Shown: in pieces, positions 1 through 2,762 of the stretch
Numbering within the stretch: the stretch's first letter is position 1
Layout of the letters: every line of letters starts with the position of its first letter
Source of the DNA: Pseudomonadota bacterium
Lineage (GTDB): Bacteria > Pseudomonadota > Alphaproteobacteria > Acetobacterales > Acetobacteraceae
Assembly: GCA_021781835.1 (NCBI GenBank)
Contig: JAJXWD010000005.1
Location: 57,896-121,895 of the forward strand
Reading direction: 5' to 3'
DNA length: 64,000 nt
The notes under the pieces: generated by a model
Databases searched by the model: none
Told to the model about the DNA's origin: nothing
What the model saw: only the letters and a program-made list of their open reading frames with translations
Position numbers and translations under genes: made by a program

Positions 1-1360
1 CCAGCACCAAGATCCCGTCCAATAACAGCGAATGTCCGGGGGAGAGCCAGAGATCGCGCCGCGGCAGCCCCCCGCCCAGCGCCCCCGCTTGCAGCCTGAT
101 CGGCAGTTTCTCCCGGTTCCCGGCAATGAACCGGCCATCATAATGCTGTTCCCCGATCCATTTGATCCGCTGCCCCCCGCCAAACCGGGTCACCACCTCA
201 TCCCCGGCGCGCAGGCTCTCGATCAGCCGCTCGCCTGTTGGCGTCTCGATCCGCGTGCCGGCCAGATGGCACACCGCCGGGCTGAAATAATAAGCGCCGT
301 CGGCGGCCAAAAACTCATCGCCCGTGCCGCTGGTATAGAGGTTGTAAAGCTGCGTAGCCGTCACCTCGAACTTGACCTGGGCGGTGGTGTAGGTGCCGCC
401 CACCTCGGCATAGCCCCAGGGATTGTACAAAATATAATCGCCCGTGCTCTGATCGACGCCCAGAACCGCGAACATATGGCTCGACATCAGGCCATAAGAT
501 GTATTGGTGTTGGAGGCGAACATGACATCCAGCCCGTGCTGGGTGTCATAGAGAATCTGGTTATAAACCGCCCCCCCGGAGGCCAGCGCCGAGAGATTGT
601 CGAGCTGGTATTGCGTCGTCATCCGGCCGGTCATGGCCAGCATCATCTCATCCCAGCCGCCATTCGAGACCATGGTGTAATTATTGGCCACGGTCTGGCC
701 TTCGGTCATCGGAAAGGTCAGGCCCGCGGCCTCGGCCTCCACAAAAGCCTTCTCCAGCACACCAATCCAGATCGAGCCGTCGGTGGTATAGGCGCTCTCG
801 TAATATCCGCCGCCCGCCACATACATCAGGTCGGAATTGACCGTGACATAGACATACCCGGTGGGTGAGCAAAACCGCACCCCATAGGTGCCGTTGCTGT
901 TCTCCCAGAGCATGGAGGACAATGCCGAGGGGTTGACGGCATCGGTCTCCATGGCCGCGGCGACCAGCCAGCAATCGCCGTTATTATAGCCCTGATCGGC
1001 GGTCATGTAGGCGGTGGCAATGTCTGCCGGAAACAGCGAGGAGCCGGTCTGGCTCACCATCGCCGCGCCGGTCAGCGGCGTCGGGTCATTGGTGCCCAAA
1101 AACCACGTATTCACCAGCCCAGTGAGCTGCGCCTTGGTATCCCCCGCGGCGCCGCCGCTGGCCACCACCTCATCGAGAATCGAATAGACATAAGACACCG
1201 TGCCGTCATTGGCGGCCACGTCCTGCAACAAGGTCTGCAGGCTGGCCGCCTGGGCCGATGTGAGGCCCGAGCTACCAATCTGCCCATCCAACGTCTGGAG
1301 ATCGTTCAGAACCGTGGCGAATGAATAGGTGGTGGACGACAACTCCCAACCCCCGCGCAA
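1..1360 (-). CDS. Calpain-like (C2 family) cysteine protease fused to C-terminal Hint domain (Hint_2-like); 3' end beyond window
   Basis: Reverse-strand translation is open across the edge. Motifs read directly: ADQGYNNGDCWLVAAA (calpain Cys), SIWIGVLEKAFVE (calpain WxxLLEKAY-like), LMSSHMFAVLGV (His), YILYNPWG (Asn), then CHLAGTRIETPTGERLIESLRAGDEVVT...LPIRLQAGALGGGLPRRDLWLSPGHSLLLDGILVL (Hint_2). Start uncertain (TTG at 1342 or 1360; in-frame stop just upstream). Confidence 0.85.
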   Translation of the reverse strand, partial: MRGGWELSSTTYSFATVLNDLQTLDGQIGSSGLTSAQAASLQTLLQDVAANDGTVSYVYSILDEVVASGGAAGDTKAQLTGLVNTWFLGTNDPTPLTGAAMVSQTGSSLFPADIATAYMTADQGYNNGDCWLVAAAMETDAVNPSALSSMLWENSNGTYGVRFCSPTGYVYVTVNSDLMYVAGGGYYESAYTTDGSIWIGVLEKAFVEAEAAGLTFPMTEGQTVANNYTMVSNGGWDEMMLAMTGRMTTQYQLDNLSALASGGAVYNQILYDTQHGLDVMFASNTNTSYGLMSSHMFAVLGVDQSTGDYILYNPWGYAEVGGTYTTAQVKFEVTATQLYNLYTSGTGDEFLAADGAYYFSPAVCHLAGTRIETPTGERLIESLRAGDEVVTRFGGGQRIKWIGEQHYDGRFIAGNREKLPIRLQAGALGGGLPRRDLWLSPGHSLLLDGILVL

Positions 1361-1366
1361 AACAGG

Positions 1367-1398
1367 ACAACACTAAACCAAGACAACACTAAACCAAG
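1367..1398. repeat. Perfect 16-bp tandem duplication (acaacactaaaccaag x2)
   Basis: Direct reading; lies immediately upstream of the calpain-Hint ORF. Confidence 0.85.
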
Positions 1399-1529
1399 AC
1401 AAGGCACGGCAAAAAACGCCCCCGCCGCGCCCCAAAAGCTCCGGGCGCATTGTGGCCAGCTCACCTTAAGCTTGGCTTAAAAAAACCGCCCCCATATGAG
1501 CCAGCCAGGGCGCCCGCGCGTGCCGTTGC

Positions 1530-2762
1530 CTACACGGCTTTGCCGCCGGTTTCCAGCATGGCCGGGTCGGCCACCTCCACCAGCAGCGCCCGGTCAAACC
1601 CATTGAAGGCCGTGCGCAGGCTCGTGCCATAGGCGCCCACCTGGCCAATCTCGATCCAGTCGCCCTCCTTGGCATCGGCGGGCAGCATGAACGGCCCGTT
1701 CATGACATCGAGCGCATCGCAGGTCGGCCCAAAAAACCCGAACGCGGCATCGGGCGCCCCTATATCATTATGGCCGGGCCGGATCAGGCGGGTGGGAAAG
1801 CGGAAATTCAGCACCCCGGCATCGGCCAGCGCGCCATAAACCCCGTCATTGATATAAAGCATCCGGTCCTTGCGCAGCTGCACCTGCACCACCACCGAGC
1901 CGCCGCCGGCAACCAGCGCCCGGCCCGGCTCGGCCCACAGCTTCAAGCCCGGCATGTCAAGCTCGGCATAAGCCGCGTCGATCGCCTCCATGAACGCGCC
2001 AAGCGCCGGCGGGTCCATATCGGGGTAAGCCACCGGGAAGCCGCCGCCGACATCGAGCACCTCCACCCGCACACCCGCCGCCCGGATGACCGCGCCGCTC
2101 AGCCTGATGGCCTCCCGCCAGGCTTCCGGCTCAAGACATTGCGACCCCACATGAAAGGCCAGCCCCAGCCGCCCGGCACGCCCCCGCGCCAAGGCCAGCA
2201 GCCGGGCCGCCAGCTCCGGCGGCGCGCCAAATTTCTTCGAGAGATTGATCGCCGCCCCGGTCTCGGGCAGCCCAACGCGCACAAACAGCCCCGGGCGGGC
2301 ATCGGGCCCAAGCTCGGCCAGCAGCTTGTCCAGCTCCTCTTCCGAGTCCAGCACGAAATCGCGCACATGGTGCACATCCCAGGCCTCGCGGATGGCCACG
2401 CGGGACTTGACCGGGTGCATGAAATGGATTTCGGCGCCCGGAAACAGCCGGCGCACAAGCTGGACCTCGGAAATCGAGGCGCAATCGAAATGCCGGATCC
2501 CGCCCTCCCACAGCGCGCGCAGCACCGTCGGCTCGGGGTTGCATTTCACGGCATACAGCACCTCGCCCTTGAACCCATGGCGAAACGCCACGGCATTCGC
2601 CGCGATCACGCCCGGCCGGATGCAATGCATCGGCTCGGAGGGGCGCAGCGCCGCGACCATTTCATCGACACTGGGCAATCTCTGCTCATCGGGCCGCAGG
2701 CTTAAACGATGGACAAGCGGCTCCACGACCGCACGGGACTGAACAAGGCTCATATCGGACAC
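1530..2762 (-). CDS. Ornithine/lysine decarboxylase, PLP fold type III
   Basis: AVKCNPEPTVLRALWEGGIRHFDCAS, HVGSQ, DVGGGFP, EPGR, FFGPTCDALD motifs. Confidence 0.92.
   Translation of the reverse strand: MSDMSLVQSRAVVEPLVHRLSLRPDEQRLPSVDEMVAALRPSEPMHCIRPGVIAANAVAFRHGFKGEVLYAVKCNPEPTVLRALWEGGIRHFDCASISEVQLVRRLFPGAEIHFMHPVKSRVAIREAWDVHHVRDFVLDSEEELDKLLAELGPDARPGLFVRVGLPETGAAINLSKKFGAPPELAARLLALARGRAGRLGLAFHVGSQCLEPEAWREAIRLSGAVIRAAGVRVEVLDVGGGFPVAYPDMDPPALGAFMEAIDAAYAELDMPGLKLWAEPGRALVAGGGSVVVQVQLRKDRMLYINDGVYGALADAGVLNFRFPTRLIRPGHNDIGAPDAAFGFFGPTCDALDVMNGPFMLPADAKEGDWIEIGQVGAYGTSLRTAFNGFDRALLVEVADPAMLETGGKAV

What the first reader, a model, noticed from the sequence alone, without database searches (positions are those of the whole stretch)
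1..1360. Calpain-like protease fused to a Hint (self-processing) domain, missing from the ORF track
The minus strand encodes one continuous frame with all three calpain catalytic contexts (GDCWLVAA, SSHMFAVLGV, YILYNPWG) plus the calpain-type WxxxLEKAF segment. It is followed directly by CHLAGTRIETPTGERLIESLRAGDEVVT...AGALGGGLPRRDLWLSPGH, a Hint_2-type module beginning with the expected nucleophilic Cys. Hint domains act as self-cleaving units in hedgehog/intein proteins. A bacterial C2 protease upstream of one suggests the Hint module could release, lipidate or anchor the protease, i.e. a self-processing secreted enzyme. It was missed because the ORF leaves the window.
Basis: partly seen in the sequence, partly recalled or inferred. 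Interest (0 to 1): 0.72.

Follow-up and report, generated by a model that had tools for sequence, protein, structure and literature searches.

The report
Calpain protease with self-cleaving Hint tail
This bacterium makes a calpain-like protein-cutting enzyme joined to a hedgehog/intein-type domain that probably cuts itself off, and the same tail is found on many other apparently secreted proteins in its family, usually together with one particular export machine.

Summary
The minus strand encodes an intact 648-aa protein (TTG start at 1342; stop 605 bases left of the window): a helical N-region, a calpain peptidase (Peptidase_C2, 42 bits, cut-off 23.8), a Hint_2 domain (136 bits, cut-off 28.4) and an unnamed C-terminal 'GWA' domain. 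The calpain Gln/Cys/His/Asn and the Hint Cys1 and block-B His are conserved, and both domains are under strong purifying selection. The same order occurs intact in three further genomes (one has two copies) and broken in two.

Hint_2 here is a general C-terminal module. The genome has eight, and relatives carry it behind subtilases, a GDSL lipase, RTX/M10-type proteins and repeat-rich adhesin-like proteins. One type I secretion locus is present in 32 of 36 Hint_2 genomes and 0 of 10 without Hint_2; on a species tree this reflects only about two joint losses.

Best explanation: a type I-exported pro-calpain whose Hint_2 cleaves before Cys358, hedgehog-style, without splicing. Cleavage, export and any lipid or anchor are untested.

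The parts
1..1342 (-). calpain-Hint_2 gene, 5' part (TTG start 1342-1340); the gene continues 605 bases left of the window to contig position C14:57291, 648 aa in all
   Evidence: start inferred from a TTG context shared with three homologues
995..1342 (-). N-terminal helical region (residues 1-116), no signal peptide; includes the WFLGT(N/D)DP segment shared by family calpains
350..994 (-). Peptidase_C2 (calpain) domain, residues about 117-331
   Evidence: Pfam 42.4 bits, cut-off 23.8; profile match to solved calpains E 7e-16
992..994 (-). Gln117, oxyanion-hole position (loop QGYNNGDC is one residue longer in this clade)
   Evidence: invariant in 9 aligned calpains
971..973 (-). Cys124, calpain catalytic cysteine
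476..478 (-). His289, calpain catalytic histidine
422..424 (-). Asn307, calpain catalytic asparagine (YNPWG)
1..271 (-). Hint_2 domain, first about 90 of 140 residues; the rest and the C-terminal GWA domain lie left of the window
   Evidence: Pfam 136 bits for the whole domain
269..271 (-). Cys358, Hint Cys1; predicted scissile junction Val357-Cys358
   Evidence: Cys in 36 of 36 Hint_2 domains compared
32..34 (-). His437 of the S/T-P-x-H block-B-like motif
   Evidence: His in 36 of 36 domains
1530..2762 (-). upstream neighbour, decarboxylase-like gene; same neighbour in the 85%-identical orthologue (synteny)
   Evidence: function name from reading the sequence, not from an HMM

Best explanation
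The gene encodes a calpain-family cysteine protease made as a precursor with a C-terminal Hint_2 tail. Most likely the protein leaves the cell without a Sec signal through the type I secretion system that accompanies Hint_2 proteins in this family. Hint_2 then makes an N-to-S acyl shift at Cys358 and the thioester is resolved, by water or a small nucleophile, so that the calpain is released from the Hint plus GWA tail. No splicing is expected, because the terminal His-Asn of inteins is missing (x-E-[ST]-[YF] instead), as in hedgehog's Hog domain. Shown here: the fusion, conservation of both active sites, the swappable passengers, the co-occurrence with one T1SS. Inferred: the cleavage chemistry, the order of steps, T1SS export. 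Unknown: the substrate of the calpain and the acceptor of the thioester.
For: Both domains pass Pfam cut-offs. Gln, Cys, His and Asn of the calpain are invariant in 9 family calpains. Cys1, the S/T-P-x-H His, a later block-F-like His and a Glu are invariant in 36 distinct Hint_2 domains, and none of those read ends in His-Asn. dN/dS between window and L048 is 0.105 (calpain) and 0.106 (Hint) against 0.34 and 0.32 for the two ends. The Hint profile's best PDB match is the C. thermocellum bacterial intein-like domain (E 3e-4), and a low-confidence model still matches inteins, BIL and Vint first. Hint_2 follows subtilases, a GDSL lipase and RTX/M10-type proteins elsewhere. The own-genome Hint_2 proteins with a clear start lack signal peptides by a simple hydrophobicity test. 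A conserved T1SS locus (ABC, HlyD, Sel1-repeat protein) is present in 32 of 36 Hint_2 genomes and 0 of 10 without. Hog uses only the N-S acyl shift (PMC7664689).
Against: No cleavage, secretion or protease activity was measured. The T1SS association rests on about two independent joint losses on the species tree, and four Hint_2 genomes lack the locus, so it may be partly common descent. No Hint_2 gene lies in the T1SS loci examined. The structure models are poor (pLDDT 44 and 52), so active-site geometry is untested. The residue before Cys1 is variable, unlike the Gly of hedgehog.
Confidence: 0.5

Rival explanations
1. Hedgehog-like adduct or anchor: the Hint thioester is attacked by a lipid, sugar or surface nucleophile, so the calpain is fixed covalently to the cell surface, as a sortase-like step.
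For: The Hog-like ending and the invariant Cys1 fit thioester transfer. Many passengers are repeat-rich adhesin-like proteins. Some Hint_2 proteins carry a glycosyltransferase after the Hint, and a homologue of the own glycosyltransferase gene lies in 18 of 35 of the T1SS loci.
Against: No sterol-recognition region or other acceptor domain is recognised; the GWA domain matches nothing in Pfam or credibly in the PDB. No acceptor is known.
Confidence: 0.17
2. Export tag only: Hint_2 plus tail is a folded C-terminal recognition module for the T1SS, and self-cleavage is slow or lost.
For: Constant C-terminal module with varied passengers, lack of signal peptides, T1SS co-occurrence.
Against: Strict conservation of Cys1, block-B His and other catalytic-type residues across 36 domains is hard to explain without catalysis.
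Confidence: 0.15
3. The calpain does the cutting: it trims its own tail or neighbouring Hint_2 proteins, and the Hint is an inhibitory lid.
For: Both active sites are intact and the domains are adjacent, about 27 residues apart; calpains often self-trim (general knowledge).
Against: Seven of the eight Hint_2 proteins of this genome have no calpain, so the Hint is kept without it.
Confidence: 0.1
4. Polymorphic-toxin-type protein in which Hint releases a toxin domain.
For: HINT domains process polymorphic toxins (PMC3482391).
Against: There the Hint lies just before a C-terminal toxin; here the enzyme lies before the Hint, no toxin domain follows and the flanking genes are housekeeping-like.
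Confidence: 0.05

Closest known systems
Hint_2 (Pfam PF13403) proteins of Alphaproteobacteria
   Same: Same domain by curated score; C-terminal position; many copies per genome; Hint and RTX domains are reported as over-represented together in fast-responding Rhodobacteraceae (PMC12487129)
   Different: The calpain as passenger; I found no report of it in the papers searched
Hedgehog Hog domain
   Same: Cys1, T/S-P-x-H block, no terminal Asn; N-S acyl shift only (PMC7664689)
   Different: No sterol-recognition region recognised; no conserved Gly before Cys1; no acceptor known
Bacterial intein-like (BIL) domains, e.g. C. thermocellum BIL 2lwy
   Same: Best PDB match by profile and second by fold; self-cleaving modules in variable bacterial proteins
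   Different: Window Hint lacks the His-Asn end of A-type BIL (PMC7765530); B-type membership was not tested
Bacterial calpains (MEROPS C2), e.g. Tpr of Porphyromonas
   Same: Peptidase_C2 with Gln/Cys/His/Asn; patchy distribution; several thought to be extracellular (PMC4631099)
   Different: That survey lists WXG100, discoidin, PPC, HemolysinCaBind and other partners but no Hint or intein

Membership tests
Calpain family C2 (Peptidase_C2) | Pfam score above cut-off | tested here: met
   42.4 bits vs 23.8
Calpain family C2 (Peptidase_C2) | Gln, Cys, His, Asn of the active site | tested here: met
   all invariant in 9 family calpains; aligned to solved calpains
Calpain family C2 (Peptidase_C2) | Active-site geometry in a model | tested here: inconclusive
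   AlphaFold model of the L048 orthologue had mean pLDDT 44
Hint_2 (PF13403) | Pfam score above cut-off | tested here: met
   136 bits vs 28.4
HINT superfamily | Nucleophilic Cys/Ser at position 1 and block-B His | tested here: met
   36 of 36 domains
HINT superfamily | HINT fold | tested here: inconclusive
   low-confidence model, but the first 16 PDB matches are inteins, BIL and Vint, best E 0.035, probability 0.98
Intein (splicing) | Terminal His-Asn and +1 nucleophile | tested here: not met
   x-E-[ST]-[YF] in place of His-Asn
Hedgehog protein | Hedge domain and sterol-recognition region | tested here: not met
   no such Pfam domain
Type I secreted protein | RTX repeats in the protein or adjacent T1SS genes | tested here: not met
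   no RTX in this protein, no T1SS gene in the flanks; T1SS on contig C40
Type I secreted protein | Secretion depends on ABC/HlyD/TolC | not testable with these tools
   needs experiment
B-type BIL domain | B-type motif set of Amitai et al. 2003 | not tested
   original paper not read; no model available

The most novel reading that the evidence does not exclude
Hint_2 is the processing or attachment module of a dedicated type I secretion pathway of Acetobacterales: passengers such as calpain, subtilase, serralysin-like enzymes and adhesins are exported, then transferred by the Hint thioester to a surface acceptor, possibly a glycan made by the associated glycosyltransferases. That would be a sortase-like or hedgehog-like surface-display system in Gram-negative bacteria.
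Probability: 0.12. Interest if true: 0.82.

Novelty: new variant of a known kind. Interest (0 to 1): 0.52.

Why it matters
Hint_2 is common in this bacterial family, but I found no experimental account of it in the papers searched; a recent bacterial-cellulose study lists a Hint domain-containing protein simply as of unknown function (PMC11999647). A small, well-defined precursor with an enzyme of known chemistry in front of the Hint gives a direct assay for cleavage. The T1SS co-occurrence makes a concrete, cheap test of how these signal-less proteins leave the cell.

Tried and rejected
The AlphaFold model of the full-length orthologue was too poor to use; the Hint-only model was used only as weak fold support. 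NCBIfam and PADLOC gave nothing. Literature searches for Hint_2 mostly returned the unrelated human gene HINT2. My first Hint profile mixed in wrong-strand translations and was rebuilt. A link between the GWA domain and a T1SS-locus glycosyltransferase was weak (hhalign probability 34%) and is not claimed. Closeness of Hint_2 genes to the T1SS locus was considered; none lies within the roughly 3-kb flanks taken. Polymorphic-toxin and intein readings were rejected on domain order and the missing His-Asn.

Full report
What is there. The window is contig C14:57896-121895 of a 2.9-Mb, 75-contig genome. The protein has 648 residues: N-region 1-116, calpain about 117-331, a short linker, Hint_2 from Cys358 to about 495, and a C-terminal domain at about 550-640 that I call GWA after its conserved motif. 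It starts without a hydrophobic, basic signal peptide.

Is it more than chance. Pfam scores are above cut-off for both domains. It is the only calpain but one of eight Hint_2 proteins of the genome. Homologues with the same architecture: L048, a MAG of the same genus at 85% identity with the same neighbours; L049 and L050, two paralogues on one contig of another MAG, 63% and 61%; and a further same-genus genome, G342, calpain profile E 4e-111 with Hint_2 at 135 bits. Other genomes of the same genus lack it, so it is patchy. Two more genomes carry the pair but broken: G084 has one in-frame TAA inside the calpain and G273 a frame change between calpain and Hint. A scan of 386 genomes drawn from the class found no other match to this calpain type, so the fusion looks confined to this family or close to it. 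dN/dS for the closest pair is 0.105 in the calpain, 0.106 in the Hint, and 0.34 and 0.32 in the two ends: both domains are kept.

Active sites. Gln117, Cys124, His289 and Asn307 are invariant in nine family calpains; the loop between Gln and Cys is one residue longer in this clade. A profile of these finds solved calpains at E 7e-16, aligned through all three catalytic sites. In 36 distinct Hint_2 domains, Cys1, the His of S/T-P-x-H, a later His and a Glu are invariant, and the Asp seven residues before the S/T-P-x-H His is present in 32. None of the sequences ends in His-Asn. The ending, H-D-x-x-x-A-E-G-x-x-x-E-[ST]-[YF], resembles the end of hedgehog's Hog domain by eye; that resemblance is from memory. 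The G342 copy, not among the 36, reads S-A-G-H. The Hint profile's best PDB match is a bacterial intein-like domain (E 3e-4). The Hint-only model is of low confidence (pLDDT 52), yet its first 16 Foldseek matches are inteins, BIL and Vint.

The wider setting. I compared 36 Hint_2 domains from this family and the named relatives. The passengers include subtilases (L080, L081), a GDSL lipase (L076), RTX proteins with M10-type domains (L066, L072, L077), repeat-rich adhesin-like proteins, and calpain. Three carry a group-1-type glycosyltransferase after the Hint: L065 and L068 by Pfam, L073 by reading. The GWA domain occurs after the Hint in many of them. So the module is the constant part and the enzyme is one of many loads.

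Export. The genome has one T1SS by HlyD score, on contig C40: an ABC transporter of 797 aa, HlyD, a Sel1-repeat protein and glycosyltransferases. A tree of HlyD proteins from the 46 family genomes examined has one clade that holds this protein. Its members come from 32 of 36 Hint_2-bearing genomes and from none of 10 Hint_2-free genomes (Fisher p 2.5e-7; by genus 22 of 26 against 0 of 7, p 8e-5). The ABC gene of that clade is 48-90% identical to the window genome's, against 26-38% elsewhere, and a homologue of the Sel1 gene lies in 30 of 35 clade loci and 0 of 27 others. Caution: on an rpoB tree of 42 of these genomes the absences fall mainly into one large clade and one small genome, so there are about two independent joint losses, and within the large clade a few genomes keep one or two Hint_2 genes without this T1SS. 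G004, with four Hint_2 genes and no HlyD hit, is fragmented and sits beside a genome that has the locus. I read this as moderate support. The order of the Fisher test's samples was partly chosen by me (genomes with calpains plus arbitrary handles), not a random draw.

Mechanism. Most likely a type I-exported pro-calpain, cleaved before Cys358 by the Hint. Shown: the parts, their conservation, the module's use elsewhere and the co-occurrence. Inferred: chemistry, timing, export. Not addressed: substrate, acceptor, calcium.

Known or new. Calpain and Hint_2 are known families, and membership of both is met. A 2015 survey of bacterial calpains lists other partner domains but no Hint, and a 2022 paper on cyanobacterial calpains mentions none. 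Only openly licensed papers were searched, and annotation databases may list the pair. I rate it a new variant of a known kind.

Taxonomy. The nearest named Hint_2 relative is Dankookia rubra, order Acetobacterales, so Acetobacterales is my inference.

Noticed in passing
L065:827-6025, L068:2129-6178, L073:346-9810: Hint_2 proteins with a group-1-type glycosyltransferase downstream of the Hint and GWA domains in one polypeptide; a glycosyltransferase would not be expected to be secreted, which suggests the Hint splits two products.
   Followed up: partly
L080:1320-5720, L081:2854-6150, L076:2816-4972, L066, L072, L077: Other enzyme-Hint_2 fusions in the family: subtilases, GDSL lipase, RTX/M10-type proteins.
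   Followed up: yes
L060:3840-9418 (contig C40): Conserved T1SS locus: ABC with an N-terminal extension, HlyD, Sel1-repeat protein, glycosyltransferases; in the sample found only in Hint_2-bearing genomes.
   Followed up: yes
L049:8001-9917 and L050:8001-9965: One MAG has two diverged calpain-Hint_2 paralogues about 60 kb apart with different neighbours.
   Followed up: partly
L061:4018-8568 and L098:558-6930: Two calpain-Hint_2 genes are broken (in-frame TAA; frame change); assembly error or decay not resolved.
   Followed up: no
window 1371-1402, minus strand: Two tandem copies of TTGTCTTGGTTTAGTG about 30 bases upstream of the start codon.
   Followed up: no
L023:1674-2471, L081:5949-7217, L153:5220-6314: GWA-type domains also occur in proteins without a Hint.
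   Followed up: no
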